This document shows, piece after piece, positions 8,110 through 24,082 of a stretch of 64,000 bases of DNA. A program made the translations under genes and the position numbers. The notes beneath the pieces were generated by a model. That model had not been told where the DNA came from. It made no database searches and saw only the letters and a list, made by a program, of their open reading frames with translations. How positions within the stretch are numbered: position 1 is the first letter of the stretch; each line of letters opens with the position of its first letter. This DNA is from Prauserella marina (GTDB lineage Bacteria > Actinomycetota > Actinomycetes > Mycobacteriales > Pseudonocardiaceae): NCBI RefSeq assembly GCF_002240355.1, contig NZ_CP016353.1, positions 5,929,001 to 5,993,000 of the forward strand, read 5' to 3'.

Positions 8110-9120
8110 TCACAGCCTGACGAGCATCTTGCCCGTGTTGGTTCCGTCGAAGAGGCCGAGAAACGCCCCGGTGGCGGCGTGGATGCCGGAGGCAGTGGTC
8201 TCGCGCAACCGCACCTGACCTTCGAGTAGCCAGCGACCGACCTGCGCCTCGAACTCGTCGGTCCGGTCGGCGTAGTCGTACACGACGAATCCGCGCAGGC
8301 TCAACCGTTTGCCGACGGCAAGGATCAGGTTGTCGGGGCCAGGTGCCGGACGCGTCTGGTTGTAGCCGGAAATGGCTCCGCACAGCGCGATCCTGCCGAA
8401 CGGCCGGATCGCGGCGATCGCGGCTCGCAGGTGGTCGCCGCCGACATTGTCGAAGTAGACGTCGATCCCGTCGGGTGCCGCGGCGCGGAGCTGTTCCCGC
8501 ACGGCGCCGTCGCGGTAGTCGAAAGCCGCGTCGAACCCGAGTTCGTCACGGAGGTAGGCGACCTTGTCGGTGGAACCAGCCGAGCCGATCACCCTGCGCG
8601 CTCCGCGCAACCTGGCGAACTGCCCGGCGAGACCGCCGACCGCACCGGCTGCTCCCGAGATGAACACGGTGTCGCCAGGCCGCATGGCGGCCACGTCGAA
8701 CAGTCCGAAGTAGGCGGTCCTTCCGGGAAGACCGAGTATTCCCAGATATGCCGAAGCCGGAGCGAGCGTCGTATCGACCCGCTGGAAGTCGGCGGATGGC
8801 GCGAGCGCGTACTCGCGCCATCCATGGTCGTGCAGCACGGTCGTTCCGACCGGCAGTTCCGGGGCTCCGGAACCGACGACCGTTCCCACCGCGCCACCGT
8901 TCATCACAGCCCCGAGCGCGAACGGTTCCACATAGGACTTGGTGTCGATCATCCTGCCGCGCATGTACGGATCCACCGAGAGGTGATCGTTGCGCACGAG
9001 AACCTCGCCTTCGCCCGGTTCGGCGATGGGAACGGAGGCGACCTCGAAGTCGTCGGCGACCGGTGTTCCCACCGGCCGCCGGACCAGGCGCACCTCCATA
9101 CCGTGACTCGGGATCGTCAT
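8110..9120 (-). CDS. Zinc-independent medium-chain NADP-dependent oxidoreductase (alkene/enone reductase type)
   Basis: A 336-residue MDR-superfamily enzyme of the leukotriene-B4 dehydrogenase/CurA type, which reduces the double bond of alpha,beta-unsaturated ketones with NADPH. It begins VRLVRRPVGTPVADDF and has the YMRGRM motif near residue 53 and the Rossmann loop SGAAGAVGGLAGQFARLRGA near residue 155. There are no zinc-ligand cysteines of the alcohol-dehydrogenase type. The ATG overlaps the stop of the preceding gene (ATGA), so it is the last gene of the ketone carboxylase operon. That position suggests it removes or forms an enone related to the ketone substrate (inference). Confidence 0.85.
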   Translation of the reverse strand: MTIPSHGMEVRLVRRPVGTPVADDFEVASVPIAEPGEGEVLVRNDHLSVDPYMRGRMIDTKSYVEPFALGAVMNGGAVGTVVGSGAPELPVGTTVLHDHGWREYALAPSADFQRVDTTLAPASAYLGILGLPGRTAYFGLFDVAAMRPGDTVFISGAAGAVGGLAGQFARLRGARRVIGSAGSTDKVAYLRDELGFDAAFDYRDGAVREQLRAAAPDGIDVYFDNVGGDHLRAAIAAIRPFGRIALCGAISGYNQTRPAPGPDNLILAVGKRLSLRGFVVYDYADRTDEFEAQVGRWLLEGQVRLRETTASGIHAATGAFLGLFDGTNTGKMLVRL

Positions 9121-9878
9121 CCTGTCCTCCGAACGCTCACCGCACTCAACAGTCCGAGGTCGCAGTCGGCGGAGACCGGTCCATCGGTGAGCACGAGACC
9201 GTGAGCCGCCGAGCCTGGCAACAACTCGGCGAAACTACCCGCCGCCCCCCGCGAGAACGCGTTCGGGGGAACCAGCGTCGCCTCCCGGCCGCCGCCGTTC
9301 AGCGCGTGCGCCCGGTATCCGGCGGAGTCGATGGCGGCTCCGCCGCAGAGCACCCCGGGAACGCCCAGCATGTCCAGCCTGCGCACGATCGACGTGTGCG
9401 CGCTTATCACCTCGTCGGCGATGTCGTCGCCGACCTCCGGCTCCCACACCAGCACCCTGCTCGCACCGGCGCCCACGTAAGCCGAGACGAGCTCGGCCAG
9501 CACGTCCCCGCAATCAAGCAGGTCGGCCGAGTCCCCGCCGCTTTCCATGGCCGCGGCCATTCCGGCAGGCCCCGTCACCGACGCGGCGACCACGGTGTCC
9601 GGGTACAACGCGGCCAGCACCTCGACCAGCTCGACGAGTCCGGCGACCGGGTCGAGAGCAGCCAGCGCGACGTCGACCAGCTCGACATCACCCGCTGTCC
9701 GCGCCGCGCGAGCCTCGGCTCCTTGGTCGTGATGGGTCACCACCCAGTCAGGACGCACCAACTCGACGGCGTCGCGCAGCCGGTAGGCCATGGGGACGGC
9801 GCCGGACCCTGGTTCGGGCCCAGCGCCTGCCATCCTGGCCGCGACCTCGGAAAGGACGGGCGCGAACAACATCGTCAT
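9117..9878 (-). CDS. Small fifth protein of the ketone carboxylase operon (URO-D-like fold?)
   Basis: A 253-residue soluble protein that I do not recognise with certainty. Pieces such as VVAASVTGPAGMAAAM, LLDCGDVLAELVSAYVGAGASRVLVWEPEV and the short TIM-barrel-like strand-helix rhythm recall uroporphyrinogen-decarboxylase/methyltransferase folds, but it is shorter than those enzymes (about 340). It is coupled by ATGA overlap to the HyuB gene before it and the reductase after it. In acetophenone carboxylase operons the fifth, smallest large-type subunit (Apc5) holds this position, so it may be the epsilon-like accessory subunit. This is inferred from order and coupling, not from clear homology. 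Confidence 0.5.
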   Translation of the reverse strand: MTMLFAPVLSEVAARMAGAGPEPGSGAVPMAYRLRDAVELVRPDWVVTHHDQGAEARAARTAGDVELVDVALAALDPVAGLVELVEVLAALYPDTVVAASVTGPAGMAAAMESGGDSADLLDCGDVLAELVSAYVGAGASRVLVWEPEVGDDIADEVISAHTSIVRRLDMLGVPGVLCGGAAIDSAGYRAHALNGGGREATLVPPNAFSRGAAGSFAELLPGSAAHGLVLTDGPVSADCDLGLLSAVSVRRTG

Positions 9879-12001
9879 TCCTCGCCGGTCTCGCCGTCTT
9901 GCCAGTCCCACGAACCGAGGTAGCCGAGATGTTCGGGGGGCGATTCCGCCCGCCATGACGCGACGAACTCGTCGTAGCCCTTGCCGCGCGCCAGTCGTGC
10001 CGCACGCTCTTCGGCACGAGCCGTCTCGGTCGCCTCGACGTCGACCTCCATCCGCTCCTCGTCCCACACCAGCCGGTAGACCTGGCTCGCCACCTCGGGA
10101 CTGATCAGTCCACGCCGCAGGTCGAGCATCGCCGCCTCGGGGTCGCGCTCCAGCGGGTCGCCGTAACCGCCGCCGCCGCCGACGCGCTGAATCCAGATGT
10201 CGCCCTCGACCCTGGGGTCGGCGGGTTCCATCGGCTCTCCCACCAGGTACTCGCCCTCGATCGGCTGTTCGCTCACCATCGTCGAGGCTTCGTAGGTCAG
10301 CCCCTTGCCGCCGTCGAGCAGCCACCGCCGCACCGCGTCGACGCCGCCGGAGGGCCGGATCCTCGTCAGCGGTGTGCAGGAACCGCCGTAGCCGCCGAAC
10401 ATCCCGCCCGTGACGGGGAACCGGCCGCCCATGCTCGTGATGCCGAAGCCGAACATCTGGCTGCCGTAAAGCATGTAGGCCCACTCGACGGACGCCCCGC
10501 CACGGAACTTGCCGAAACCGTGGTTGTCGGCCGGAATGCGCCGCCACAGGCCGAGCAACGGCAGTTCGGCCTCCCGCAACTCCATCTCGCCCCAGTCCGA
10601 CACCGGCGCGAAGATCGGCCCCGCCGCGTGCTCGCCGTCGCGATCGTGGAGCGCTCCGCCGCCTGCCGCGTTCATCTCCGTCGAGACGTTCGCGTTGACC
10701 TGCATGTGCTGAGTCAGGCCGCCGTACTGCAAAGTGGGTATCTGCGCGTACCAGGGCGCCATCGGCTTCGCGCCGCCGGGAACCGCGAACATCGCCTTGG
10801 TCACCGCCTGGTGCAGCGCCGCGTTCACGGTGAACATCGTCAGCAGGGACAGCGAACTGGGCTGCTCCGGCCCCGCCGTGACAATGGACCCCGGCTCCAG
10901 GTCGTAGTCGAGCGCCGCGATGAATCCCGCCGTGCGGGGCAGGTCCCCGTAAAGGAAGTTCATGAACAGGTTGCCGACGATGGCCCTCGTGAAGTGAGCC
11001 TGGGCATTGAGCGCGCGATCGATCGATGGCGAGCTGCCCTTGGTGCGGACCGTGAGCTTGTCGCCACGCTTCTCCAACTCGATGGCGACCTTGAAAAGCC
11101 GCTCCTCCATCAACGTGTTGTCCCCGAAATGCACGGACCGGTAAACGCCGTCCGGCCAGGCCGCGATGCGGCGCCGCACCTCGGCCTCCGTCGTCTCCAG
11201 CACCGAGCGCATGGTCGCGATCAGCAGCTCTGGGGAACGTTCCCCCATGAAGTCGTGCAGCCTGTTCTCGACCGCTCGCGCCGACGCGAGCTTCGACCTG
11301 ATGTCGGTCAGCCACAACATCGGATCGCGCACCTGGTTCTGGAACAGGTTCACGACGTCGCGGCGAACGATGTAATTCTCGCCGATCTTCATCGGCGGAA
11401 TCCGGATTCCTTCGCCGTACTTGGTGGTCGCCCGTACCGAGAAACCACCGGGGTCGATCGCGGAGCCGTTCTCGCCCTCGTGGATGATCGCGCCGATCCA
11501 CGCGATGTGCTCTCCCTTCCAGAACAACGGGATGAGCAACGTGTGGTCGGGATTGTGGGTCCCGCCGTAGTTGGCGTCGTTGTGGTAGAAGACATCCCCT
11601 TCGGCGATGCCGACGGTCGGCTCGTCAGCCCAGTAGCGCGCGATGAACTTCGGCACCGACGAGGTCGTCGCGGAGAACATGTTCACGCCGCTCGACGTGG
11701 CGACCGCGAAGTCGCCCTCCTTGGTGTAGATGCCGACGATCAGGTCTCCCCACTTCGCCGCGGCCGACGCGCTGATCTGCTGCATCATTTCGATGGAGGA
11801 CTGCAACACCGCCTCGACCCTGCTCAGTCCCACCGAAAGGTCGGCTGGGTCGGTGATCGCGGCGAGTGCTTCGTTCTCGCGTTCGGTACGCGGCCGCAAC
11901 CGGTACTCCGCGTTGATCTCGGGGTCCGGCCCGTACATCACCGGCTGGTTGTTCAGCAGGTCGGCGAAGAACTGCTCGGTGCTCGACTCGGCCGTGCTCA
12001 T
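9875..12001 (-). CDS. Hydantoinase B/oxoprolinase family subunit of a ketone carboxylase
   Basis: A 708-residue HyuB-type protein (PF02538), the presumed carboxylating subunit that binds phosphorylated substrate or CO2. Family features seen are GDVFYHNDANYGGTHNPDHTLL near residue 130, HEGENGSAIDPGGFSVRA near residue 180, and the glycine-rich GGGGYGDPLERDPEA near the C terminus. The ATG at 12001 overlaps the HyuA stop (ATGA) and gives the usual length; upstream in-frame codons only read into HyuA DNA. It would be the equivalent of the 75-kDa subunit of acetophenone carboxylase. The substrate is unproven. Confidence 0.82.
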   Translation of the reverse strand: MSTAESSTEQFFADLLNNQPVMYGPDPEINAEYRLRPRTERENEALAAITDPADLSVGLSRVEAVLQSSIEMMQQISASAAAKWGDLIVGIYTKEGDFAVATSSGVNMFSATTSSVPKFIARYWADEPTVGIAEGDVFYHNDANYGGTHNPDHTLLIPLFWKGEHIAWIGAIIHEGENGSAIDPGGFSVRATTKYGEGIRIPPMKIGENYIVRRDVVNLFQNQVRDPMLWLTDIRSKLASARAVENRLHDFMGERSPELLIATMRSVLETTEAEVRRRIAAWPDGVYRSVHFGDNTLMEERLFKVAIELEKRGDKLTVRTKGSSPSIDRALNAQAHFTRAIVGNLFMNFLYGDLPRTAGFIAALDYDLEPGSIVTAGPEQPSSLSLLTMFTVNAALHQAVTKAMFAVPGGAKPMAPWYAQIPTLQYGGLTQHMQVNANVSTEMNAAGGGALHDRDGEHAAGPIFAPVSDWGEMELREAELPLLGLWRRIPADNHGFGKFRGGASVEWAYMLYGSQMFGFGITSMGGRFPVTGGMFGGYGGSCTPLTRIRPSGGVDAVRRWLLDGGKGLTYEASTMVSEQPIEGEYLVGEPMEPADPRVEGDIWIQRVGGGGGYGDPLERDPEAAMLDLRRGLISPEVASQVYRLVWDEERMEVDVEATETARAEERAARLARGKGYDEFVASWRAESPPEHLGYLGSWDWQDGETGEE

Positions 12002-14130
12002 GCCTTGCCCTCCTGCCGCATCGTGAAGAAGCCGTACGCGTCCATCTCGCCCGACCACCCCGGCTCAAGCACGATGTTCGTGTTGGCGGCCTCGATGATC
12101 GCGGGACCGGTCAGCCGGTGCCCGGGGCCGAGTGCCGCGTAGTCGTAGATCTCGGTCTCCCTCGGTTGCTCCGTCGTGGCCCACCAGCACTCCCGCGATC
12201 CCTTGCGGGCGGCGCTGACCGGTCCACCGGCAGGTTCCCTTTCGACCTGCCTCGGCGCTGCCCTCGGAATCCAGGCCCGCAACCGGATGGCGTCGATCGA
12301 GATGCCGATCTCCTTTGTCAGCGCCAGATCCCCGAAGCGGTCGCCGTACTCCTCGAAGTACGCCTTGATGACGGCGGCGAGGTCGTCCTGGGTTTCCAGC
12401 CTTCGCACGGGGCTCGCGATCGTGATGACGTAGAGCTGGCCCGTCGAGCGCATGTCGAGTTCGACGACCGTCTCGATGTCGCCGGCCCCGTAACCCTGAC
12501 CCGCGAAGTCCGAAACGGCCCTGTCGTGGAATTCATCCACAATGGAGTTGAAGCTGTCGAAGTCGCTGAACAGCTGCTTGACCAACGGGTTGAACAACAC
12601 CATCCACGCTGACCGCTCGTAGATGTGCAGCCGTTCCAGACCGGCCGCGCCGGAAGCGGAGAACACCGAGCTGTGCGGCGGAACGACGACCTTGCTCGCG
12701 TCGAGTGCCCGTGCGTAGCCACATGCGTGCATCGGGCCACCGCCACCGAAGGAGAACACCGCGAACTCACGGGGATCATAGCCCTTGACGGTGATTCCCT
12801 TGAAGATCTCGGCGCCCATCGCCTCGTCGACGACCTTGCGAATGCGCCGGGCTGCCTCGACGACCGGAACGCCGAGGGGTTTGGCGATGCGGCGTTCGAT
12901 CGCCCGCTCGGCGCGCCTGCGGTCGAGCGGCAGCTTGCCGCCGTGGTAGTTGCCAGGGTCGAGGTAGCCGAGCACGAGGTTCGCGTCGGTGACGGTCGGT
13001 TCGGTGCCGCCCTGCCCGTAACAGGCTGGGCCGGGGTTGGAGCCCGCCGACTCGGGGCCGACGGCGATTCCGGTGATCGGATCGACCCTGGCGATGGAAC
13101 CGCCACCCGCTCCGATCGCGGCGATGTCCATCATCGGGACCTGAACGTGCCAGCGGTCGATGACGGGATTGAAGTCGTAGAAGCGAACCGAACCGCTCAC
13201 CACGATGCCGACGTCGAACGAGGTTCCGCCCATGTCGGTGGTGACGACCTTGTCGAAACCGTGGCTCTGCGCCAGATGCCGCGATCCGTAAAGGCCGGAA
13301 ACCGGTCCGGCGTGGACGGTCTGGATCGGCGTCGTCGCGGCGAGGCTTCCCATTCCACCGCTGTTGTGGACGAGCAGCAGCTCGCCCCGGTAGCCACGTC
13401 CGCGCAGCTTGTCCCGCAGTGAGGAAAGCCGGTCGGCGGTGAAGCGATGCAGGTAGGCGTTGATCGTCGCCGTCATCGACCTCCCGTACTCACCGGCACG
13501 CTGCGACACCTCGTGGGAAAGGATCGTGGGGAACCGGCCGAGGTAGGTGTTGGGGTACTCCTCCTCGACGATCGCGCGCACCACCTTCTCGTGCTCAGGG
13601 TTGAGGTGTGCGTTGAGCAGGCACACCACGAATCCGCGCACGCCCTGGTCGACGAGATCCATGACGCGCTCGCGAACTTCCTCGGGATCGAGTGGCATGA
13701 CCACGTTCCCGTTGGAGTCGACGCGTTCGGTCAGCGCGGCTATGCACTCCGGCTCGATCAGCGGTTCGGGCCGCTGAGCGCGGGAGAGATCGCGGGTCGC
13801 GGTGGCGGGCAGGCCGTCGGCCCACTGCCTGCACCGTCCGATGGGGACGGTGTCCTCGTGACCACGCGTGGTCAGCAGTCCGAGCCGGGGACCCGCTCGC
13901 TCGATCAGCGCGTTGGTTCCCAGCGTCGTCGCGTACCGGATCGTCGTCGTCCCGTCAAGCAGCCCGTCGACATCGAGGCCGGTCTCGGCCGCGATGTCCT
14001 CCACCGCACGCAGAAACCCGATCGAGAGGTCGTGGTGCGTGGTGAGGGCCTTGGCGGTGCGGATGTGACCGTCCTCGGCCGTGGCGAGGCAGTCGGTGAA
14101 CGTCCCTCCGATGTCGACGTTGATCTCCAT
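11998..14130 (-). CDS. Hydantoinase A/N-methylhydantoinase family ATPase subunit of a ketone carboxylase (large)
   Basis: A 710-residue HyuA-type ATPase (PF05378 plus PF01968). It opens with the actin-like phosphate loop INVDIGGTFTDCL and has the second phosphate motif TTDMGGTSFDVG near residue 300 and an adenosine-type glycine loop FSFGGGGPMHA near residue 470. Such subunits phosphorylate the enol form of the ketone or the bicarbonate. The ATG shares one base with the stop of the small zinc subunit gene (TGATG) and its 3' end overlaps the HyuB gene. It corresponds to the 87-kDa Apc3-type subunit by size and order. Confidence 0.84.
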   Translation of the reverse strand: MEINVDIGGTFTDCLATAEDGHIRTAKALTTHHDLSIGFLRAVEDIAAETGLDVDGLLDGTTTIRYATTLGTNALIERAGPRLGLLTTRGHEDTVPIGRCRQWADGLPATATRDLSRAQRPEPLIEPECIAALTERVDSNGNVVMPLDPEEVRERVMDLVDQGVRGFVVCLLNAHLNPEHEKVVRAIVEEEYPNTYLGRFPTILSHEVSQRAGEYGRSMTATINAYLHRFTADRLSSLRDKLRGRGYRGELLLVHNSGGMGSLAATTPIQTVHAGPVSGLYGSRHLAQSHGFDKVVTTDMGGTSFDVGIVVSGSVRFYDFNPVIDRWHVQVPMMDIAAIGAGGGSIARVDPITGIAVGPESAGSNPGPACYGQGGTEPTVTDANLVLGYLDPGNYHGGKLPLDRRRAERAIERRIAKPLGVPVVEAARRIRKVVDEAMGAEIFKGITVKGYDPREFAVFSFGGGGPMHACGYARALDASKVVVPPHSSVFSASGAAGLERLHIYERSAWMVLFNPLVKQLFSDFDSFNSIVDEFHDRAVSDFAGQGYGAGDIETVVELDMRSTGQLYVITIASPVRRLETQDDLAAVIKAYFEEYGDRFGDLALTKEIGISIDAIRLRAWIPRAAPRQVEREPAGGPVSAARKGSRECWWATTEQPRETEIYDYAALGPGHRLTGPAIIEAANTNIVLEPGWSGEMDAYGFFTMRQEGKA

Positions 14131-14486
14131 CAGCGTGCCTGCCCTTCGCGGATCTCGGATGCCCTCGCCAGCAGGGCATCCACGTCGATCTCGATGTCGT
14201 AGGCCAACGGGTGCCCCGGTGGCAGGTATTCGGTCTCCACCTGAGCGGCACAGCCGGGGCAGTAGTACTCCACGATCCGGCACCAGGCGGGGTCTGGCGC
14301 GAAATCGTGCTCGCCTTCGAACCGTCCTGGGTGGATTTCCCTCGGGTTCCTGTCGTTGAGCAGGAGCCCGCGCTTGTAGTTCTCCCTCGCCGGGCCGATG
14401 GCATGCCCGCAACGCTCGCAATGCCAGGTCTCGGTCTCGGGGTCGATCTCAAGGTATTCCGTGACCCGGAGGCGTCGATCACTCAT
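14130..14486 (-). CDS. Acetone carboxylase gamma-like zinc-binding small subunit
   Basis: A 118-residue protein with two paired-cysteine knuckles, CERCGHAIG near residue 21 and YCPGCAAQVE near residue 83, consistent with one zinc site. The middle has the EIHPGRFEGEHDFAPDP segment and the end the PPGHPLAYDIEIDVDALL segment seen in the small subunit of acetone and acetophenone carboxylases. Its stop overlaps the next HyuA start by one base (TGATG), and its own ATG overlaps the preceding HyuA stop in the same way, implying stoichiometric translation with both ATPase subunits. This gene is what separates the locus from ordinary hydantoinase operons. Confidence 0.8.
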   Translation of the reverse strand: MSDRRLRVTEYLEIDPETETWHCERCGHAIGPARENYKRGLLLNDRNPREIHPGRFEGEHDFAPDPAWCRIVEYYCPGCAAQVETEYLPPGHPLAYDIEIDVDALLARASEIREGQAR

Positions 14487-16318
14487 CAGATACTCCTTGT
14501 CGGGGCGGTCAGCCGCAGTGCGCCGTTGTCGTCGAGCGCAACCGTCCAACCGGGTGGCACGGTGCAGGTCGTCGCAGAGGACTCGACGAGCGCGGGACCG
14601 GACACCGGATCACCGGTGCGCAACGCCGTCCGGTCGAGCACCGCGGTCGGCAGTTCACCGTGACCGGGCCAGCGGACAGGGCTCGTCGTGCCGGACGCCC
14701 CGCCGCGCGCACCGGCGTCGGGCTGGGCCAGTCCCACGTGCGGAAGGGCGTAGGTCGCCTCTACCGCCGTCCATTCGACGCCGTCGCGCCGGAACGCGGT
14801 CACCTCAAGCGTGACGTCCTGGCTCTGGATGCCCTCGCCGCGCATGTCCCGCAGCGCCCTCGCGGTCAGCGTCTCCTCGCTCACCTCGCCCGCGATCGAT
14901 TCGTGGCGATGCCGGATGTCCACTGTGGATGCTCCGTAGGCGGAGAAGACCGGAGCGAACGGCAGGACGACCAGCTCGCCGATTCCGGCTGCTTCGGCGA
15001 TCGCGGCACCGTGCGTCGCGCCGTTGCCGCCGAAGGCGAGCGCGGTCACCGAAGCCGGATCGACGCCGCGCTCGGCCAGTTCGGCCGCGAGCCGCGCTCC
15101 CGTGTCGCCATGCGCCGTCGCGAGCACGCGCTCGGCCGCCTCTTGCACGGTCGACCCGAGCACCTTCGCCAGCGGTTCGAACGCGCGTTCCGCGGCGGCC
15201 CGGTCGACGCCCATCTTGCCGTCCATGAAGGATTCGGGCCGGAGCACACCGAGCACGACATCGGCATCGGTGATCGTGGGCTCGGTACCACCGAAGCCGA
15301 AGCAGGCAGGGCCGGGTTTCGCGCCCGCGCTGTGCGGACCGACCTTGAGTTCGGAGCCGTCGAGCCAGGCGATCGACCCTCCGCCGACGCCGAGCGGAAC
15401 GAGGTCGGGAAGCGGGAAGGAGATCTCGACGTCCTCGACCATGCCGTGCTCGCGCATCGGCACCTCGCCCGCACTGAGGATGCCGACGTCGAGGCTCGTC
15501 CCGCCCATGTCAAGGGTGACGAGGTCGTCGAACCCGTAGTGCTCGGCGACGGTGCGGGCGCCGAGCAGCCCCGCCATCGGACCCGAGTTGTAGGTCTTGC
15601 CCGCGATGGTCCTCGCCACTCGCGCCGCACCGCCGTCGTTGTGCACGATCCGCAATGGCCGCTGGTAACCGTTGTCGCGCAGGTAGTCCTCGGCGCGGTA
15701 GAGATAGTCGGCGACGTCCGGATGTACGTAGGCGTTGAACAACGCCGTCGACCTCCGGCGAGCGACGTCGGGGTCGGCGGCGACCTCGCCTGCCCGCAGC
15801 AGCGGCACCGCGTCGAGGCAGTGCCGGGGATAGTGTTCGGCGAAAGTGTCGGCGAGCGCTTGTTCGTCCTCGGCCGCGTCGTCCGAGCAGGCGACGACAA
15901 GCCCGCGCGCTCCGTCTTGCAGCAACGAACGCAGCGCAGGCAGGGCCCGCTGCCCCGGGTCGCCCTCACCCGCCGGTATCGCCGCGACCATGGCGGGTTC
16001 CACGAACAACCGCACTCCGGCGTCCTGCTTCAGGTCGGCCGAATCGGCGTCGGTGAGCAGGCCGATTCGCGGCCCGCGCCGCTGCACGACGGTGTTCGTT
16101 CCCACGGTCGTGGCGTAGCGCACCGAGACCGTCTCGCGCAGCAGGTCGGGTACGGTCAGCTCGACAGCGGCCGCCGCGCCCTCGATGGTCTCGCGAAAGC
16201 ACACCGCGAGATCGTGGGGGGTCGTCAACGTCTTGATGGTGTGCGCGATGCCGTCCCGCACGACGAAGCCATCGGTGAACGTACCCCCCGTGTCGATATC
16301 GATCGTGATGACCGCCAT
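14486..16318 (-). CDS. Second hydantoinase A family ATPase subunit of the ketone carboxylase (first gene)
   Basis: A 610-residue HyuA-type ATPase with the phosphate loop ITIDIDTGGTFTDGFVV at the N terminus, second phosphate motif VTLDMGGTSLDVGIL near residue 275, and ALAFGGNGATHGAAIAEA near residue 440. The ATG at 16318 sits 8 nt after a GGAGAGGAG ribosome site and starts homology immediately. It is the first gene of the operon, facing a PucR-type regulator across a 208-bp spacer. By size and order it matches the 70-kDa Apc1 subunit. Two different HyuA genes around one small zinc gene is the acetophenone-carboxylase arrangement; acetone carboxylase has one. Confidence 0.82.
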   Translation of the reverse strand: MAVITIDIDTGGTFTDGFVVRDGIAHTIKTLTTPHDLAVCFRETIEGAAAAVELTVPDLLRETVSVRYATTVGTNTVVQRRGPRIGLLTDADSADLKQDAGVRLFVEPAMVAAIPAGEGDPGQRALPALRSLLQDGARGLVVACSDDAAEDEQALADTFAEHYPRHCLDAVPLLRAGEVAADPDVARRRSTALFNAYVHPDVADYLYRAEDYLRDNGYQRPLRIVHNDGGAARVARTIAGKTYNSGPMAGLLGARTVAEHYGFDDLVTLDMGGTSLDVGILSAGEVPMREHGMVEDVEISFPLPDLVPLGVGGGSIAWLDGSELKVGPHSAGAKPGPACFGFGGTEPTITDADVVLGVLRPESFMDGKMGVDRAAAERAFEPLAKVLGSTVQEAAERVLATAHGDTGARLAAELAERGVDPASVTALAFGGNGATHGAAIAEAAGIGELVVLPFAPVFSAYGASTVDIRHRHESIAGEVSEETLTARALRDMRGEGIQSQDVTLEVTAFRRDGVEWTAVEATYALPHVGLAQPDAGARGGASGTTSPVRWPGHGELPTAVLDRTALRTGDPVSGPALVESSATTCTVPPGWTVALDDNGALRLTAPTRSI

Positions 16319-16526: not shown

Positions 16527-17783
16527 ATGGGCAGGTCAATGACGATCGATCGGCGGAGCGGCGTGGATTCGCAACGCCTCGGCTGGCTGGCGGGTTGGCT
16601 CGACGCGGAGTTCGACGCCCTGCTCGACGCCCTTGTGGACGGCGAGCTGGCCGACGTTCCCGAACTCGCGGTCGCAAGGCAGGACCCGCGCGGCGAGATC
16701 AGGCACTCGGTGCGAGTCCATCTCATGGCGTTCGCGGACAGCGTCCGGCACTCGGTGTCCGAAACAGACGTGGCGCTACCGGCTTTCCTCACGCGACACA
16801 CCCGTGCGCTGGCTCGAAAGGACATGCCGACGCTGCCCGCGTTGTTGCGGGCCTTCGAGAAGATCCACGCCGGTCTGTGGCGACGGATCGCCGCCGCCTT
16901 GCGCAACGGCCCCTACAAGCTGGCACCCGAACAGCGAGCCGAGGTCCTCGAACTGGCTTCGGCCCGCCTTTTCGCCTATTTCCAGGTCGCGAGCGGCGAA
17001 ACCGCGGCGGCATACGCCGCCGAACGCGCGCTGCTGCAACGGAGATCGACGTCACAACGCTCCGAGGTGGTCACGGCGTTGCTCGCCGGATCAGTGACTC
17101 CCTCCGCCGCGGAGCAGGCACTCGGCTACGACCTGAACGCGACCCACGTGGCCTATGTGGCCTGGGTCGACGATCTGTCCAACCTGGACCGGCTCGACAG
17201 CGTTCTCTCCACACTGACCGAGCACATCCGGCCACGTCAGCATCTAAGGGTGTCCACGGAGGACCATTGCCAGTTCGGCTGGATCACCTGCCACAACGAC
17301 ACCTGGCTCGGCGTCGTGCGCGACATCGGATTGCCGGCAGGCATTCACTGCGCGTGGGGTTCGCCGCAACAGGGCGCCGAAGGCTTCCGCGCCAGCCATT
17401 TCGACGCGCTGGAAGCACGCAGGGTCGGCGAGGCGACCGGACTCGCCGAACGGCCGGAGCCCGTCATCTTCGACAACGTGGCCGTCGCGTCGCTCGCTTC
17501 CCGTGATCTCAGTTCCGCCACCGCGTTCGTCCACCGCCAGCTGGGCAGGCTGGCGGGCACGGACGAACTCGCTGCGCGCCTCGTGGGGACGCTGCGCGTG
17601 TACCTCGACGAGCTAGCGAGCCCGACCAGGACCGCGCGGCGGCTGCACGTTCATCCCAACACGGTGGTGAAGCGGGTCGAGCGCATCGAGGCCATGCTCG
17701 GCAGGAAGGTCGATCCGGCCAGCCTTTCCCTTCGGGTCGCCGTGGAACTGGCGCCGCTTGCCCGCTCCACCCCACCCTCGTGA
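16527..17783 (+). CDS. PucR/CdaR-type transcriptional regulator
   Basis: A 418-residue regulator. The N-terminal 190 residues look like a RsbRD-type all-helical sensor region. The C-terminal part ends in the PucR HTH (PF13556) at about residues 355-400: LVGTLRVYLDELASPTRTARRLHVHPNTVVKRVERIEAMLG. This family activates catabolic operons in response to pathway metabolites. It is divergent from the ketone carboxylase operon, which is the obvious target. The ATG at 16527 is used; another in-frame ATG lies four codons later. It converges on the SDR pseudogene with 21 bp between stops. Confidence 0.87.
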   Translation: MGRSMTIDRRSGVDSQRLGWLAGWLDAEFDALLDALVDGELADVPELAVARQDPRGEIRHSVRVHLMAFADSVRHSVSETDVALPAFLTRHTRALARKDMPTLPALLRAFEKIHAGLWRRIAAALRNGPYKLAPEQRAEVLELASARLFAYFQVASGETAAAYAAERALLQRRSTSQRSEVVTALLAGSVTPSAAEQALGYDLNATHVAYVAWVDDLSNLDRLDSVLSTLTEHIRPRQHLRVSTEDHCQFGWITCHNDTWLGVVRDIGLPAGIHCAWGSPQQGAEGFRASHFDALEARRVGEATGLAERPEPVIFDNVAVASLASRDLSSATAFVHRQLGRLAGTDELAARLVGTLRVYLDELASPTRTARRLHVHPNTVVKRVERIEAMLGRKVDPASLSLRVAVELAPLARSTPPS

Positions 17784-17804: not shown

Positions 17805-18601
17805 TCACGCGCAGTCCACGACGCCGCCGTCGAGCGGAAGCACGACACCGGTCAGGTAGGCACCCGCGCGCGAGGACAGGAACTGGACGACGCCCGCGAT
17901 GTCCGATGTCGTGCCGACCCTTCCCATCGGGATGGACGCTTCCAGCTCCCGTTTCGTGTCGGGGTCGTTGAACACGAACGCGCTCATCTTGCTCTCGAAG
18001 TATCCGGGCGCGATGGCGTTGACGGTCACGTTGTCGCCGGTGAGATGCCCGGCGAGGTGCCGGGTCAGCATGTGCACTGCCGCCTTGGTCGAGCTGTAGG
18101 CGTAGTTCTCCAGGGAAGTCACCCGCAGCCCGGCTATCGAACCGATGTTGATCACTCGTGCCGGGTCTTGCTCGCTTCCGGCCGCGCGCAACGCATCCAG
18201 CAACGCCACCGTCAGCCGGAACACCCCGGCCAGATTGACGTTGACCAGTTTTTCCCATGCGGCGTCGGGAAATTCCGCAAGCGGAGCCCCCACGTCGCCC
18301 CCGCGTTGTTCACCAGGATGTCGAGTCCGCCTTCGAACACGTCGTCCACCGCACGAGCCAGTGTCTCAGCACCCTCGGGCTTCGAGACGTCGGCCGCTAT
18401 CCCTGTGCACTCGCCGAACACGCCGAGCCGATTCGCCGTGTCCTCGCACACGTCCGGCTTGCGGGAGGCGACGATCACGCGCGCTCCCGCACGCACGAGA
18501 CCTTCGGCGATCATCGACCCGATACCGCTGGTACCTCCGGTCACCACGGCGGTTTTCCCCGCGATACCGAATATGCCATTCGTGAACTCGCTCGCCGTCA
18601 A
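17805..18601 (-). pseudogene. SDR family oxidoreductase, frameshifted by one missing base
   Basis: Two overlapping frames together give one complete SDR. The 5' frame encodes the N terminus with TGGTSGIG near residue 21 and LDILVNNAGATWG; the 3' frame resumes with APLAEFPDAAWEKL and continues through YSSTK to PLDGGVVDCA. The break falls in a run of five G on the coding strand (C run 18287-18291); a sixth G would join the frames exactly after ATWG. So there is either a real 1-nt deletion or an assembly error in a homopolymer. The start is a TTG that overlaps the upstream SDR stop (TTGA). Intact, it would be a 265-residue last gene of the ligase-thiolase operon. Confidence 0.85.
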
Positions 18602-19398
18602 AGCGTCACCGAGTAGCCGCCGTTGACGGGCACGGTTTGTCCCGTGATCCAGGACGCCGCCGCAGAAGCGAGGAAAACCACCATTCCCGACGCGTCGGCC
18701 GGTTCGCCGAGCCGGCGCACCATGTACTGCGACAGTATTCGCTTGTTCCGCTCGGGATCGGCCAGAAACTGCTCGGTCGCCGGGGTGCGGGTAGCACCGA
18801 GCGCGACGGAGTTGGCGGTGACCTGATACCTGCCGCCGAGCCGAGCCAGTGCCCTTGTCAGACCGGCCGCGCCTGCCTTGGCGCCCGAATACGCTTCAAG
18901 CCCGCCGATCTCGCCGACCCGCCCCGCGTCGGAGATGACGGTGACGATCCTTCCTCCCGTTTCGCTCTCCACCATGTGCGCGAGAGCGTGCCGGGAACAG
19001 TTGAGGACGCCGTGCAGGTTGACGCCGACGGACGGCGCCCACTGCTCAGGTCCCTGTTCCCAGAACGGAACCGACGGTGGCGGCGCGTCGCCGCCCTGAT
19101 TGCCTGCGTTGTTGACCAGAACCCCGACCGGGCCGTAGGAGTCCTTCGCCGCCGCGAACATCGCGCCGACGGCATCGAAGTCGACGACGTCGCATTGCGC
19201 GCCAACGGCTTTCGTGCCCGTTCGCCTGATCTCTTCGGCGACCTGTTCCGCGCGTCCGGCGTCGATGTCGTTGACCACCACCGCACCGGCCCCGTGTGCG
19301 GCGAGATCCAGCGCGATCTGGCGGCCGACTCCCTGCCCTGCCCCGGTGACGACGGCAACCCTGCCCTGGACGTCGAGTATCTGCCGGGTCTCACTCAC
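18598..19398 (-). CDS. SDR family oxidoreductase
   Basis: A 266-residue classical SDR with TGAGQGVG near residue 18, NNAG near residue 94, SDAGRV in the catalytic-Ser region near residue 150 and YSGAK near residue 170. It resembles 3-hydroxyacyl-CoA or hydroxysteroid dehydrogenases in the beta-oxidation-like clusters of actinomycetes. The GTG start lies 3 nt after the enoyl-CoA hydratase stop and its end overlaps the next SDR. It would oxidise a 3-hydroxyacyl-CoA or a secondary alcohol (inference from context). Confidence 0.87.
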   Translation of the reverse strand: MSETRQILDVQGRVAVVTGAGQGVGRQIALDLAAHGAGAVVVNDIDAGRAEQVAEEIRRTGTKAVGAQCDVVDFDAVGAMFAAAKDSYGPVGVLVNNAGNQGGDAPPPSVPFWEQGPEQWAPSVGVNLHGVLNCSRHALAHMVESETGGRIVTVISDAGRVGEIGGLEAYSGAKAGAAGLTRALARLGGRYQVTANSVALGATRTPATEQFLADPERNKRILSQYMVRRLGEPADASGMVVFLASAAASWITGQTVPVNGGYSVTL

Positions 19399-19401
19399 GT
19401 G

Positions 19402-20166
19402 TCAGCGCCCCTTCCATTCCGGTTGCCGTTTCTCGGCGAAGGCGGTCATTCCTTCGTGGTAGTCGGCCGAATTCAGCACCTCGTCGACGAACGGTTCCTG
19501 GTTCAGCCAGCTTTCGGTGTCCGTCCACTCCTGACTACGGCGCACGATCGCCTTGCTTGCCTTCACCGCGACCGGCGCCGCCGCGGCGACCTCACCCGCG
19601 AGCACGAGCGCGACCCCAAGCGCTTCACCAGGTTCGGCGAGGCGGTTGACGAGCCCCAGTTCGTGGAACCGTTCGGCCGACCACGTCGCGCCGGTCACCG
19701 CGGCTTCCATCGCCATGGCGTAAGGAATCCGTTTCGGCAACCGGAACAAACCACCGCCCATGGCAGGGAAACCGCGCTTGGCTTCCGGCAGACCCAGTTT
19801 TGCCGTACGTGAGGCGACGACGAGGTCGCAGCTCAAACAGAGTTCGAGCCCACCGCCGACCGCGTGCCCCTCGACGGCGGCGATGATCGGTTTCTCCGGC
19901 GGCTGGGCCATGATTCCCGCGCCACCACGACGATCCGTCTTGCCCAGTTCCCCCTTGCCAGCCGCGATGATGTCCTGCCCGGCACAGAAAACGTCGCCCT
20001 CACCGGTCAGCACGGCGACCCTGAGTTCGTCGTCGCGGTCGAATTCGTCGATCGCCGCTTCCATCGCGTAGGCCGTCGCCAGGTCGAACGCGTTCTTCCG
20101 CTCAGGCCGGTTGATCGTGATGACCGCGATGGCGCCCTTGCGCTCGAACCGCACCAGTTGAGTCAC
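19402..20166 (-). CDS. Enoyl-CoA hydratase/isomerase (crotonase) family protein
   Basis: A 254-residue crotonase-fold enzyme. Oxyanion-hole residues are in FCAGQDI near residue 64 and GHAVGGGLEL near residue 105, and GLPEAKRGFPAMGGG near residue 130 holds one of the two usual acidic positions. The GTG start overlaps the thiolase stop (GTGA), so it is translationally coupled. It would hydrate a 2-enoyl-CoA made by the operon's CoA ligase. The exact acyl chain is not known. Confidence 0.87.
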   Translation of the reverse strand: MTQLVRFERKGAIAVITINRPERKNAFDLATAYAMEAAIDEFDRDDELRVAVLTGEGDVFCAGQDIIAAGKGELGKTDRRGGAGIMAQPPEKPIIAAVEGHAVGGGLELCLSCDLVVASRTAKLGLPEAKRGFPAMGGGLFRLPKRIPYAMAMEAAVTGATWSAERFHELGLVNRLAEPGEALGVALVLAGEVAAAAPVAVKASKAIVRRSQEWTDTESWLNQEPFVDEVLNSADYHEGMTAFAEKRQPEWKGR

Positions 20167-21371
20167 GCGGCCGCCTTCCGGTAGATGGTGACGACGCCCG
20201 CGCTGCCGAGGCCGAGGTTGTGCGCCAGCCCGACGCGGGCGTTCTCGACCTGGCGGGCGTCGGCCTTTCCACGCAACTGCCAGCTCAGCTCGGCGCACTG
20301 CGCGAGTCCGGTTGCCCCCAGCGGATGTCCCTTGGAGATGAGCCCGCCGGAGGGGTTGACCACCCACGCGCCGCCGTGGGTCGTCTCGCCGGCGTCGACG
20401 AGCGCACCGCCCTCACCCTCCCCGCACAATCCCAGCGCCTCGTAGGTGAGGATTTCGTTGATCGAGAAGCAGTCGTGCAGTTCGATCACATCGATGTCGT
20501 CAGGGCCGAGCTGCGCCTGTTCGTAGGCTTGCCGCGCGGCGCGCTTGCTGACCCCGGCGCCGACGATGGTGAACGCGTTGTCGTAGGCGTCCTCGGTGTC
20601 GGTCGCCAGCGCCTGCCCCACGATCTCGACCGCCTGGTCCGCGAGGCCGTGCCGCTCGACGAACTCCTCGGAGACGACCACGGCCGCGGCCGAACCGTCG
20701 GACGTCGGCGAACACTGCAACTTGGTCAGCGGATCGCACACCAGCGGCGAGGACAGGATTTCCTCCAGCGAGTACACGTCCTGGAACTGCGCGTTGGGGT
20801 TCGCCGCGGAATGCCGGTGGTTCTTCTCGGCGACCTTGGCGAACTGTTCGGCCGTCGTGCCGTACCGCTCCATGTGGTCCAGCCCGGCGGCGCGGAACAT
20901 CTCAAGCACGACGGGACCGCCGGTCGGTTCCCGCAGTTTCGCCGCCGCGGCCATGAACTTCTCGACCGGGTTCGTCGCCTGTGGATGGGCCGGAGTGCCG
21001 AGCGAACCACCCAGCATCTTCTCGAAACCCAGTGCCAGCACGCAGTCGGCCAGGTTTCCCGCGACGAGCTGCCGTGCGTAGAACAGCGCCGACGACCCGC
21101 TCGCGCAGTTGTTGTTGAGGTTCAGCACCGGTATTCCGGTCATGCCCAGCTCGTAGACAGCTCGCTGGCCGGCCGTCGAATCGGCGTGCACGTAGCCGAC
21201 GCACGTTTGCTCGATGTCCGGGTAGCCGATGCCCGCGTCGGCAAGCGCCGCGGTCACGGCCTCACTGGCCAGCTCGGGGTAGTTGGGATCGGGCTTGCCA
21301 GGCTTGACGAACTTGGTCATGCCGACACCGACGACGAATACGCGTTTCATGGATTTGGCCCGTTGCCTCAC
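20163..21371 (-). CDS. SCP2/lipid-transfer type thiolase (acetyl-CoA acyltransferase)
   Basis: A thiolase of about 395-402 residues of the SCP-x/Ltp type used for degrading branched or cyclic beta-ketoacyl-CoAs. It begins MKRVFVVGVGMTKF, has the acylated cysteine in NLNNNCASGSSAL near residue 90, ELHDCFSINE near residue 300, and GHPLGATGLAQ near residue 345. A GTG at 21371 overlaps the ligase stop (GTGA), while the conventional MKRVF start is the ATG at 21350; both are possible. In a ketone-carboxylation pathway this enzyme would cleave the beta-ketoacyl-CoA to acetyl-CoA and a shortened acyl-CoA. Confidence 0.86.
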   Translation of the reverse strand: MRQRAKSMKRVFVVGVGMTKFVKPGKPDPNYPELASEAVTAALADAGIGYPDIEQTCVGYVHADSTAGQRAVYELGMTGIPVLNLNNNCASGSSALFYARQLVAGNLADCVLALGFEKMLGGSLGTPAHPQATNPVEKFMAAAAKLREPTGGPVVLEMFRAAGLDHMERYGTTAEQFAKVAEKNHRHSAANPNAQFQDVYSLEEILSSPLVCDPLTKLQCSPTSDGSAAAVVVSEEFVERHGLADQAVEIVGQALATDTEDAYDNAFTIVGAGVSKRAARQAYEQAQLGPDDIDVIELHDCFSINEILTYEALGLCGEGEGGALVDAGETTHGGAWVVNPSGGLISKGHPLGATGLAQCAELSWQLRGKADARQVENARVGLAHNLGLGSAGVVTIYRKAAA

Positions 21372-22906
21372 TCCGTGCCACCCGGCCCGTACTGGTCGCG
21401 CACCGTCCTGCGCAGCACCTTCCCCACCGGGCTCTTCGGGAGTTCCGTACCGAAGCGGACGCTGGTGACCCGCTTGACGGGGCCGACCTTGTCGCGGGTC
21501 CAGGCGATCAGTTCGTCCTCGGACACGTTTGCGCCGTCGGCGAGCACGACGAGTGCCATCGGGGTCTCACCCCATTTGTCGTGCGGAATTCCGACGACCG
21601 ACGCCTCCCGCACCTCGGGATGTGCCACCAGGGCGTTCTCCACCTCGGCGGGCCAGACGTTGAAGCCACCCGAGATGATCATGTCTTCTTTGCGGTCGGT
21701 GATGAAGAGGTATCCATCCTCGTCGAGATAGCCCATGTCGCGGGAGAGAACCGACCCGTCGGCGAGCTTGCGCGCCTTCGTCGCCGCCGGGTCGCCCCAG
21801 ATCTCGGTGAACGCGCCAGGCGTGTCGAACGCGATCTCGCCGATCTCGCCCTGTGGCAGCTCGGCACCGTGTTCGTCGACGATCGTGATGCGGCTGTTCG
21901 CGGTCGCCCTTCCAGCCGAACGCAGGTACTTGCCGTCCCGCGCGGTGTGGTCCTGCGGCCTCAGCCAGCTCGCCGGTGCGCCCTCGCTCTGTCCGTACAG
22001 CTGCACCATGATGTCGCCGAACACCGAGCGGGCCTCGTTCAGCGCGGTCTCCGTCATCGGCGAACCGCCGTAAATGATGGCCCGCAGGCTGCTCAGATCT
22101 CTCGTGCTCGCGTCGGGGTGCCTCGCCGCGAGCTGCACCATGGTCGGCACGCCGAAGGTCACCGTGCAGCGATGCCGCTCCACCGCCGCGAGGAACTCGC
22201 CCGGTTCGAACGCGCGCAGCACGACGATGGACGCACCGGCCGCCAGCACGCCTGGCACCGGCATCATCGTGGCGTGGGACAACGGGCCACCCGCGAGGTA
22301 GGAGTCCGAGGTGCCCAGCTCCGGAAGGAGTATGGCCGTCTCGGTACCCATGCCGGTCCACGCCCGCACCGAGTGCAGGATGCCTTTCGGCTTGCCCGTC
22401 GTTCCCGCCGAGAACCGGATGGTCTGCGGCGCCTCCGGCGGCATGACGATTCCCCTGTCCCGCTCCGAGGACGCGGCCAGCAGTTCCTCGTAGTCGAGAG
22501 CGCCGCTGGGCGCCGCGCCGTCGAACACCAGTACGTGGCGAAGCGTGACTGCCTGCTTGAGGTGGGGCGCGATGGCGTCGTAGTAGTGTCCCTGCACGAT
22601 CAGCACGCTCGCGCCGATGGTGTTCAGCAGGTACAGGTTCGTCTCTGCGCTGTTGTGGGTGTAGAGGGAGGCTCTGACGTAACCGCCGAGCGCGATGCCG
22701 AGGACCAACTCCAGCGCTTCGGGGCTGTTGTCGGTGAGCGTGGCGACCCGTTCACCCTGGCTGACGCCAAGTCCGGCAAGCGCGTTGTCCAGTCGGCAGG
22801 ACCGCAGATAGACCTGTCCGTAACTCTGGGTAACGCCCTGGTATATGATCGCAGGCTGACGCTCGTACCGCGTTCCTCCCGTACGAACCAAACTCGCAAG
22901 GTCCAT
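21368..22906 (-). CDS. Fatty-acid/aryl-CoA ligase, FadD-like AMP-forming
   Basis: A 512-residue AMP-forming acyl-CoA synthetase. The nucleotide-binding motif is IRFSAGTTGKPKGIL near residue 178 (Ala where many have Ser), VQLYGQSEGAP is near residue 312, DRKEDMIISGGFNVWPAEVEN near residue 400, and the catalytic lysine region PKSPVGKVLRR near the end. It is the first gene of the operon ligase-thiolase-hydratase-SDR-SDR and is divergent from an AraC regulator. A role such as benzoylacetate- or other beta-keto acid-CoA ligase would fit the neighbouring ketone carboxylase but is inference. Confidence 0.87.
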   Translation of the reverse strand: MDLASLVRTGGTRYERQPAIIYQGVTQSYGQVYLRSCRLDNALAGLGVSQGERVATLTDNSPEALELVLGIALGGYVRASLYTHNSAETNLYLLNTIGASVLIVQGHYYDAIAPHLKQAVTLRHVLVFDGAAPSGALDYEELLAASSERDRGIVMPPEAPQTIRFSAGTTGKPKGILHSVRAWTGMGTETAILLPELGTSDSYLAGGPLSHATMMPVPGVLAAGASIVVLRAFEPGEFLAAVERHRCTVTFGVPTMVQLAARHPDASTRDLSSLRAIIYGGSPMTETALNEARSVFGDIMVQLYGQSEGAPASWLRPQDHTARDGKYLRSAGRATANSRITIVDEHGAELPQGEIGEIAFDTPGAFTEIWGDPAATKARKLADGSVLSRDMGYLDEDGYLFITDRKEDMIISGGFNVWPAEVENALVAHPEVREASVVGIPHDKWGETPMALVVLADGANVSEDELIAWTRDKVGPVKRVTSVRFGTELPKSPVGKVLRRTVRDQYGPGGTE

Positions 22907-23125
22907 CACAAGACCTTCCCGTGAGATGTCCGGATGCCCGATTCGCGACGGTCGCGTGGGCCGTGCCGTCACGCTAGGAGCCGCCGTGGCGCGCAACAAT
23001 GGACCGAACCGACACCCGGCGGTGGTGCATCGGCACAGGGCTCCGACGCCGCCGACACGCCGAATGTGTTGCCGAGGTGGGTTACGCTGCGGCAAAACGG
23101 AGTACTCGAACGACCGGAGTCAGCC

Positions 23126-24082
23126 GTGCCCGACACCTCGCTGTGCAGCCAGACGGCGTCAACCCTCGGGATGGCGCCTGGCGAGTCACGCGAGTTCTGG
23201 CGGCTGACCGCCACGAGCTACCAATGCAACATGACCTGCGACTTCGCCGACGACGACGAGTCGGGAACGAGCACGCTGACCCGGTTGCGGACCGACCAGA
23301 ACCAGGTACTGGCCTGGAACTCGCCTCAGGTGCGGTATCGCAGGAAGCCCGAGCACATGCGGCAGGACGGCATCGATTCCTACGTCCTGGTCCTGCCCGT
23401 CGCCGGTGCGGTGGACGTCGGTCTCGGCAACGGCAGGATGACGCTGCGACCCGGCCACGCGGCTCTCATCACCACGACAAGGCCGTTCGACGTCACCCAC
23501 ACCTCGGACGCTCGGCTTCGGGCGATCACGATCCAGCGCAGGGTGATTCACCAGCGGTTGAACAAGAAGACGGAGTTCGAAGCGCCCATCGACCTCGTCG
23601 ACGGGCTTGGCGGGGTCGTGCACGACCTGATGAACAGCGCGCTGCGAGCGGCTGACCAGCTCTCCGCGAACGAATTCGACGCGGTGATCGACCGGCTGGT
23701 CGAGCTGGTGTGCGTGCTGGTGGGAACCGGCATGGTCGACGCGGGTGATCACTTCGGCGAGATCGAGACCGCGATCCGCCGCTACGTACGCGACAACGCG
23801 CACGACCCCGATCTCAACAGCGAACTGCTCGCCTCGGCGCTCGGCTGGTCGGCAAGGCAGATCCAGCTCGCGTTGCAACGATCGGGAACCACCTGCCGCG
23901 AACTGATCAAAGAAGAGCGGCTTTCCCTGGCGCGCCACCGGCTCACCAGCCCCGCCTACGGCGGGATGTCCATCACCGAACTCGCCCACCGGTGCGGTTT
24001 CTCCTCGCCGGGCAGGTTCAGCACGGCGTTTCGGGAGCGGTTCGGCAGCACGCCGCGAGAACTGCGCCGTGGCGAACACTGA
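23126..24082 (+). CDS. AraC family transcriptional regulator
   Basis: A 318-residue regulator with an AraC-binding-like sensor domain (about residues 40-190, containing YRRKPEHMRQDGIDSYVLVLPVAG) and a C-terminal double HTH (about 215-315) ending SITELAHRCGFSSPGRFSTAFRERF in two runs. The GTG at 23126 follows GGAG at suitable spacing, and homology begins soon after. It faces the CoA ligase operon across 219 bp, so it is the likely activator of that operon in response to the substrate. Confidence 0.87.
   Translation: MPDTSLCSQTASTLGMAPGESREFWRLTATSYQCNMTCDFADDDESGTSTLTRLRTDQNQVLAWNSPQVRYRRKPEHMRQDGIDSYVLVLPVAGAVDVGLGNGRMTLRPGHAALITTTRPFDVTHTSDARLRAITIQRRVIHQRLNKKTEFEAPIDLVDGLGGVVHDLMNSALRAADQLSANEFDAVIDRLVELVCVLVGTGMVDAGDHFGEIETAIRRYVRDNAHDPDLNSELLASALGWSARQIQLALQRSGTTCRELIKEERLSLARHRLTSPAYGGMSITELAHRCGFSSPGRFSTAFRERFGSTPRELRRGEH

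What the first reader, a model, noticed from the sequence alone, without database searches (positions are those of the whole stretch)
8110..16318. Acetophenone-carboxylase-like five-gene ketone carboxylase operon in an actinomycete
The order is HyuA (610 aa), zinc small subunit (118), HyuA (710), HyuB (708), fifth protein (253), all overlapping by 1-4 nt. This repeats the order and approximate sizes of the Apc1-5 subunits of Aromatoleum (70, 15, 87, 75, 34 kDa as I recall). Acetone carboxylase has only one HyuA, so the locus points to an aryl- or alkyl-ketone carboxylase. The downstream enone reductase is an unexpected addition.
Basis: partly seen in the sequence, partly recalled or inferred. 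Interest (0 to 1): 0.75.

Follow-up and report, generated by a model that had tools for sequence, protein, structure and literature searches.

The report
Acetophenone-carboxylase-like operon in an actinomycete
This is a complete five-subunit, ATP-driven ketone carboxylase of the acetophenone carboxylase family, next to the genes needed to break down its product; both predicted substrate pockets differ from the one studied enzyme, so it probably acts on another, still unknown ketone.

Summary
Five genes at 9117-16318 (minus strand) overlap by 1-4 nt in the order alpha'-gamma-alpha-beta-epsilon, followed by an overlapping enone reductase (8110-9120). Every subunit's best curated family is acetophenone carboxylase (Apc), and the core subunits match the Apc structure 5L9W. 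The fifth protein has no Pfam match, but its clade profile finds the solved Apc epsilon subunit (9FOU), and a confident model has that URO-D/MtaA-like fold. In trees alpha falls in the Apc-alpha clade and alpha' in the Apc-alpha' clade, apart from hydantoinases and acetone carboxylase; the zinc cysteines are present.

It suggests ketone to beta-keto acid to beta-ketoacyl-CoA to thiolysis. The enone reductase occurs in only three of the seven closest loci.

The clade lies far from Aromatoleum Apc. Alpha pocket residue Asn282 is His in 24/24 clade members and 0/51 others; Lys281 of the presumed bicarbonate site of alpha' is Asp in 23/23. Scores are far below the NCBIfam equivalog cut-offs. So it is an Apc-type ketone carboxylase, but naming acetophenone as substrate is not justified. 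Epsilon proves near-universal in the sampled family.

The parts
14486..16318 (-). alpha' subunit (ApcA-like HyuA, 610 aa); presumed bicarbonate kinase
   Evidence: NCBIfam ApcA 3.8e-96; PDB chains 5L9W_B 6.1e-86 and 5L9W_b 1.1e-78; in the Apc-alpha' clade; DTGGTFTD, DMGGTSLD and GAKPGP ATP motifs
14130..14486 (-). gamma subunit (ApcB-like, 118 aa, Cys4 zinc site)
   Evidence: 5L9W_C 8.7e-41 against acetone carboxylase gamma 2.9e-6; NCBIfam ApcB 5.9e-46; C23, C26, C76, C79
11998..14130 (-). alpha subunit (ApcC-like HyuA, 710 aa); presumed ketone kinase
   Evidence: 5L9W_B 3.8e-189 against acetone carboxylase 2e-97 and hydantoinase 1.2e-96; Apc-alpha clade, support 1.0; ERVDSNG fingerprint and ATP motifs
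9875..12001 (-). beta subunit (ApcD-like HyuB, 708 aa), putative metal site D86/H149/D152/H174
   Evidence: 5L9W_A 1.6e-92 against acetone carboxylase 5.8e-44; D-H-D-H conserved in 69 of 70 sequences
9117..9878 (-). epsilon subunit (ApcE-like, 253 aa, URO-D/MtaA-like fold)
   Evidence: NCBIfam ApcE 6.7e-8; profile of the window's clade to 9FOU 3.6e-9; AlphaFold pLDDT 88.7; Foldseek top hits 9FOU, TM 0.74-0.78
8110..9120 (-). NADPH-dependent enone / double-bond reductase (CurA/PTGR family, 336 aa)
   Evidence: NCBIfam CurA 349 bits, below its cut-off of 440; PDB double-bond reductase 7E4D 1.2e-105; overlaps epsilon by 4 nt
16527..17783 (+). PucR-type regulator, divergent from the carboxylase operon
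   Evidence: HTH_30 and GGDEF_2; conserved next to alpha' in L012-L017
17805..18601 (-). second SDR dehydrogenase, split by a frameshift into 18212-18601 and 17805-18293
   Evidence: two frames match the intact L012 protein
18598..19398 (-). SDR dehydrogenase (FabG-like)
   Evidence: Pfam adh_short_C2 1.3e-48
19402..20166 (-). enoyl-CoA hydratase, both catalytic Glu positions occupied by Glu
   Evidence: NCBIfam PRK08252 above its cut-off; sequence
20163..21371 (-). SCP2-type thiolase
   Evidence: PDB SCP2-thiolase type-1 6HSJ 3.8e-149; lipid-transfer protein family above its cut-off
21368..22903 (-). AMP-forming acyl-CoA ligase
   Evidence: Pfam AMP-binding 6.9e-67 (longer ORF 21368-23095); FadD8 and feruloyl-CoA synthetase among the best PDB hits
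22934..24082 (+). AraC-type regulator, divergent from the ligase
   Evidence: HTH_18; conserved in L012-L017

Best explanation
[quoted passage not shown] Alpha phosphorylates the enol form of a ketone. Alpha' makes carboxyphosphate from bicarbonate. Epsilon, a URO-D/MtaA-like barrel, helps bring the two activated substrates together, and the C-C bond forms in the core, possibly at the conserved metal site of beta. The beta-keto acid is then activated by the upstream acyl-CoA ligase and cleaved by the SCP2-type thiolase to acetyl-CoA and a shortened acyl-CoA. The SDR and enoyl-CoA hydratase either supply the ketone from an alcohol or continue beta-oxidation. In this genus the enone reductase probably saturates an alpha,beta-unsaturated ketone before carboxylation. 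Shown by sequence: subunits, motifs, phylogeny, fold of epsilon, conserved neighbourhood. Inferred: every catalytic step, the order of steps and the substrate, which is probably not acetophenone.
For: All five subunits hit the Apc family first in NCBIfam, and the four core subunits hit the Apc core structure first in the PDB. Alpha lies in the Apc-alpha clade (support 1.0) and alpha' in the Apc-alpha' clade (0.999), apart from 17 hydantoinase-like HyuA rows of related actinomycetes, the reference N-methylhydantoinase and two acetone carboxylases. Epsilon matches 9FOU by profile and by fold. ATP motifs in both HyuA proteins, Cys4 in gamma and D-H-D-H in beta are conserved. The ligase, thiolase, hydratase and SDR next to the operon recur in other genera. 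Solirubrobacteraceae locus L018 has a thiolase and a ligase flanking the five genes in another arrangement.
Against: No activity data exist for any member of this clade. The predicted ketone pocket (T72, V272, H273, P276, I324, D335, I336) shares T, D and I with N-methylhydantoinase, and the Lys of the presumed bicarbonate site is Asp. The link with ligase and thiolase is not significant once the window's close relatives are counted as one (p 0.10 and 0.34). Tamaricihabitans (L016) lacks thiolase, hydratase and SDR beside the operon.
Confidence: 0.72

Rival explanations
1. It is a true acetophenone carboxylase: same substrate as in Aromatoleum, with sequence drift only.
For: Same five subunits and order; ligase and thiolase could form the benzoylacetate to benzoyl-CoA steps.
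Against: It lies in a different subclade. In alpha five of the seven pocket residues differ (L81T, F281V, N282H, Q344D, T345I) and in alpha' two of three (E248N, K281D); these states are shared by the window's closest relatives. Scores are 24-62% of the equivalog cut-offs for the four core subunits and 7% for epsilon.
Confidence: 0.1
2. It carboxylates a small aliphatic ketone (acetone, butanone) like Acx, only with Apc architecture.
For: An aliphatic residue replaces the aromatic F/Y281; the two Acx rows also have an aliphatic residue there.
Against: Two HyuA, a short gamma and epsilon, unlike AcxABC; acetoacetate does not obviously need this ligase, hydratase and SDR cassette; the enone reductase family acts on larger enones.
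Confidence: 0.1
3. It is an ATP-dependent hydrolase of an amide, lactam or hydantoin that has taken on extra subunits.
For: HyuA and HyuB are shared with hydantoinases; T81, D344 and I345 of the pocket are as in hydantoinases.
Against: Trees put both HyuA inside Apc clades; hydantoinases lack gamma, alpha' and epsilon (PMC5214803); the neighbourhood is CoA-dependent carbon catabolism with no amino-acid genes.
Confidence: 0.06
4. The ketone is cyclic: carboxylation, CoA activation and opening by a crotonase-type hydrolase, as in the BadI route.
For: A crotonase-family gene sits beside the ligase; the SDR has a BadH hit among many others.
Against: The crotonase keeps both hydratase glutamates and scores above the cut-off of a crotonase/enoyl-CoA hydratase family; an SCP2-type thiolase is present.
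Confidence: 0.08

Closest known systems
Acetophenone carboxylase of Aromatoleum aromaticum (ApcABCDE; PDB 5L9W core, 9FOU epsilon)
   Same: Same five subunits in the same order, two ASKHA kinases, Cys4 gamma, beta metal site, URO-D-fold epsilon; a CoA ligase in the same cluster (bal in Aromatoleum).
   Different: Separate subclade; alpha pocket T-V-H-P-I-D-I instead of L-F-N-P-I-Q-T; alpha' site N-D-D instead of E-D-K; shorter alpha' and epsilon; own thiolase, hydratase, SDRs and an enone reductase; PucR/AraC instead of two-component regulation.
Acetone carboxylase AcxABC (Xanthobacter; PDB 5SVB, 5M45)
   Same: HyuA, HyuB and zinc gamma; H-D-H metal residues of the HyuB subunit.
   Different: One HyuA only, longer gamma, no epsilon; outside the Apc-alpha clade in the tree.
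Hydantoinase / caprolactamase / 5-oxoprolinase (HyuAB, CapAB)
   Same: HyuA kinase and HyuB folds.
   Different: Two genes only, no gamma, alpha' or epsilon; outside the Apc clades.
Apc-like clusters reported in actinobacteria (Rhodococcus ruber Chol-4, Paraconexibacter AEG42_29, Rubrobacter xylanophilus)
   Same: Genome-annotated Apc-like operons in the same broad group (PMC6498646, PMC11737030, PMC5214803).
   Different: Annotation only in the passages read; no activity reported there and no discussion of the pocket differences described here.

Membership tests
[quoted passage not shown]
   criterion from PMC5214803
[quoted passage not shown]
   supports 1.0 and 0.999
[quoted passage not shown]
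   118 aa; C23, C26, C76, C79
[quoted passage not shown]
   DIGGTFTD/DMGGT/GSNPGP and DTGGTFTD/DMGGT/GAKPGP
[quoted passage not shown]
   TERVDSNG in alpha (first residue differs), none in alpha'
[quoted passage not shown]
   gamma length fits Apc; beta 708 aa lies between Apc (684) and Acx (776 in 5SVB/5M45); alpha' is shorter, 610 against 658
[quoted passage not shown]
   profile to 9FOU 3.6e-9; Foldseek TM 0.74-0.78
Acetophenone carboxylase proper (NCBIfam equivalogs) | Scores above curated equivalog cut-offs | tested here: not met
   323/1250, 156/250, 684/1500, 353/1500, 32/450 bits
Acetophenone carboxylase proper (NCBIfam equivalogs) | Ketone pocket residues of 5L9W alpha (L81, F281, N282, P285, I333, Q344, T345) | tested here: not met
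   T, V, H, P, I, D, I in the window
Acetophenone carboxylase proper (NCBIfam equivalogs) | ATP-dependent carboxylation of acetophenone | not testable with these tools
   needs an enzyme assay
Acetone carboxylase (AcxABC) | Single HyuA, order A-B-C, long gamma | tested here: not met
   two HyuA, short gamma, different clade
Hydantoinase / oxoprolinase | Two-gene AB unit; HyuA in a hydantoinase clade | tested here: not met

The most novel reading that the evidence does not exclude
The window's clade (His282-type alpha with Asp281-type alpha') is a second functional class of Apc-like carboxylases. It would activate a different kind of ketone, such as a saturated methyl ketone made from an enone, and bind bicarbonate differently from Aromatoleum Apc, with epsilon as an obligatory subunit of nearly the whole family.
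Probability: 0.35. Interest if true: 0.55.

Novelty: new member of a known kind. Interest (0 to 1): 0.4.

Why it matters
As of PMC5214803 only one enzyme of the Apc branch had been characterised, yet a single scan of GTDB genomes found 246 relatives. The window's clade offers actinomycete systems (Prauserella, Tamaricihabitans, Amycolatopsis, Nocardia) in which a different ketone could be identified from the linked pathway genes. It gives a residue-level hypothesis for specificity (His282, Asp281') that can be mutated. It also suggests that epsilon, whose role was left open in 2017, is a near-constant subunit of URO-D/MtaA-like fold and not an occasional extra.

Tried and rejected
The first gamma alignment A2 used two loci on the wrong strand and was replaced by A3. 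The first iterative epsilon search was contaminated by over-long ORFs (window 794 aa, L014 410 aa) that pulled in beta; it was repeated without them. Single-sequence phmmer of epsilon against the PDB found nothing convincing; only the clade profile did. Enrichment of ligase or thiolase genes near the clade disappeared when close relatives were collapsed. The search for the left flank in sister genomes failed; the right-flank gene lies on other contigs in G003 and G020, so no empty site was tested. Literature searches found no characterised member of the clade. Acetone carboxylase, hydantoinase and BadI-type ring opening were considered and set lower for the reasons given under rivals.
Full report
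Observation. The operon is on the minus strand. Alpha' (14486-16318, 610 aa), gamma (14130-14486, 118 aa), alpha (11998-14130, 710 aa), beta (9875-12001, 708 aa), the fifth protein (9117-9878, 253 aa) and an enone reductase (8110-9120, 336 aa) overlap by 1, 1, 4, 4 and 4 nt. Pfam gives two Hydantoinase_A proteins, Acetone_carb_G, Hydantoinase_B and an MDR reductase; the fifth protein has no Pfam match. The genome holds one PF08882 gene and two further HyuA genes elsewhere.

Membership. All five subunits have Apc models as best NCBIfam hit: 323, 156, 684, 353 and 32 bits. All are far below the equivalog cut-offs of 1250, 250, 1500, 1500 and 450. In the PDB, gamma, alpha and beta hit 5L9W much better than acetone carboxylase or hydantoinase (8.7e-41 against 2.9e-6; 3.8e-189 against 2e-97; 1.6e-92 against 5.8e-44), and alpha' also hits 5L9W first. 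PMC5214803 defines the Apc branch by gene order, clade, subunit lengths, ATP motifs, the R/KERiDsxG fingerprint of alpha and the four cysteines of gamma. All but length were tested and met; length is mixed. A tree with 17 hydantoinase-like HyuA rows from the same and related actinomycete genomes, the reference N-methylhydantoinase and two acetone carboxylases puts window alpha in the Apc-alpha clade (1.0) and alpha' in the Apc-alpha' clade (0.999) (smaller outgroup set).

Epsilon. Alone, the fifth protein scores 6.7e-8 with the ApcE model. A profile of the window's clade (8 loci) finds 9FOU, the solved Apc epsilon subunit, at 3.6e-9. A family-wide profile finds it at 1.4e-61, and MtaA 4AY7 at 1.9e-15. 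Pfam URO-D matches 22 of 53 members. The AlphaFold model (pLDDT 88.7, pTM 0.90) has 9FOU chains as its top three Foldseek hits (TM 0.74-0.78), followed by URO-D enzymes. Iterating the profile over all loci found 62 ORFs, and 55 assigned clusters with beta also have epsilon. Of five clusters with none at the threshold and enough downstream sequence, two show a weak match on an exhaustive search (2.1e-8, 9.6e-8), leaving L052, L062 and L082. In several loci epsilon is displaced, for example before gamma in L080, between gamma and alpha in L088/L090 and before alpha' in L073. This may explain why PMC5214803 described the fifth subunit as absent from some operons, with close orthologues known only from Nevskia and Rubrobacter. 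The fold of epsilon itself is already public in 9FOU, released December 2025.

Pockets. PMC5214803 assigns the ketone pocket of alpha to L81, F281, N282, P285, I333, Q344 and T345, and the bicarbonate site of alpha' to E248, D274 and K281, by geometry and analogy and not by ligand structures. The window has T, V, H, P, I, D, I and N, D, D. His282 occurs in 24 of 24 alpha sequences of the tree-defined clade and 0 of 51 others; T81 in 24/24 against 7/51; position 281 is V, I or M in the clade and mostly F or Y elsewhere; alpha' 281 is Asp in 23/23 and Lys in 34 of 50 others. No locus combines His282 with Lys281. The clade includes plasmid loci of Rhodococcus jostii RHA1 and R. qingshengii and a Cupriavidus necator plasmid. 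The four putative metal residues of beta are conserved in 69 of 70 sequences (window D86, H149, D152, H174); three of them align with the H-D-H manganese ligands of acetone carboxylase (PMC5543143; alignment).

Neighbourhood. Upstream lie a PucR regulator, a frameshifted SDR, a second SDR, an enoyl-CoA hydratase with both catalytic glutamates, an SCP2-type thiolase, an AMP-forming acyl-CoA ligase and an AraC regulator. The order AraC, ligase, thiolase, hydratase, SDR, SDR', PucR, alpha', gamma, alpha, beta, epsilon recurs in Prauserella endophytica, Amycolatopsis marina, Saccharomonospora CUA-673 and Nocardia flavorosea. Tamaricihabitans lacks thiolase, hydratase and SDRs; Nocardia donostiensis keeps only the regulators. 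The enone reductase follows epsilon only in the two Prauserella and Tamaricihabitans. Solirubrobacteraceae L018 has its own thiolase and ligase around the five genes. The gene set is patchy: 2 of 4 genus-mates and one other of the sampled genera in the family carry a close gamma; the right-flank gene is on other contigs in G003 and G020, which suggests movement or loss.

Mechanism. By analogy with Apc (PMC5214803), alpha forms the phosphoenol ketone, alpha' forms carboxyphosphate, epsilon assists their meeting, and the beta-keto acid goes to the ligase and thiolase. The reductase's relatives with solved structures include double-bond reductases and the raspberry ketone/zingerone synthase. A saturated arylalkyl or alkyl methyl ketone is therefore a reasonable first guess where that gene is present, but it is only a guess. 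All catalytic statements are inference.

Verdict. It belongs to a clade for which no characterised member was found, with changed pockets, so the substrate is open. Apc-like operons in actinobacteria have been annotated before (PMC6498646, PMC11737030, PMC5214803), so this is a new member of a known kind, with a testable specificity hypothesis.

Noticed in passing
window 17805-18601 (-): The second SDR of the cassette is split by a frameshift near 18265-18300, while it is intact in L012, L013 and L017; either a pseudogene or a sequencing error.
   Followed up: partly
L080 8918-9874, L088/L090 10479-11426, L073 6493-7512: The epsilon gene sits elsewhere in the cluster (before gamma, between gamma and alpha, before alpha'), so searches only downstream of beta miss it.
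   Followed up: partly
L024 1289-14000 and L062 9998-20327: Paenibacillus naphthalenovorans and a Desulfobacula MAG each carry two Apc-like clusters side by side.
   Followed up: no
L014 7982-14950: The Saccharomonospora CUA-673 locus has frame breaks in alpha' and beta, probably assembly quality.
   Followed up: no
L092, L093 (same genome, 2.79 and 2.56 Mb): Two further HyuA proteins, hydantoinase-like, in the same genome, outside the Apc clades.
   Followed up: partly
L009 2487-9700 (-): In this order-level relative the cluster order is gamma-alpha-beta-epsilon-alpha', with alpha' last.
   Followed up: no
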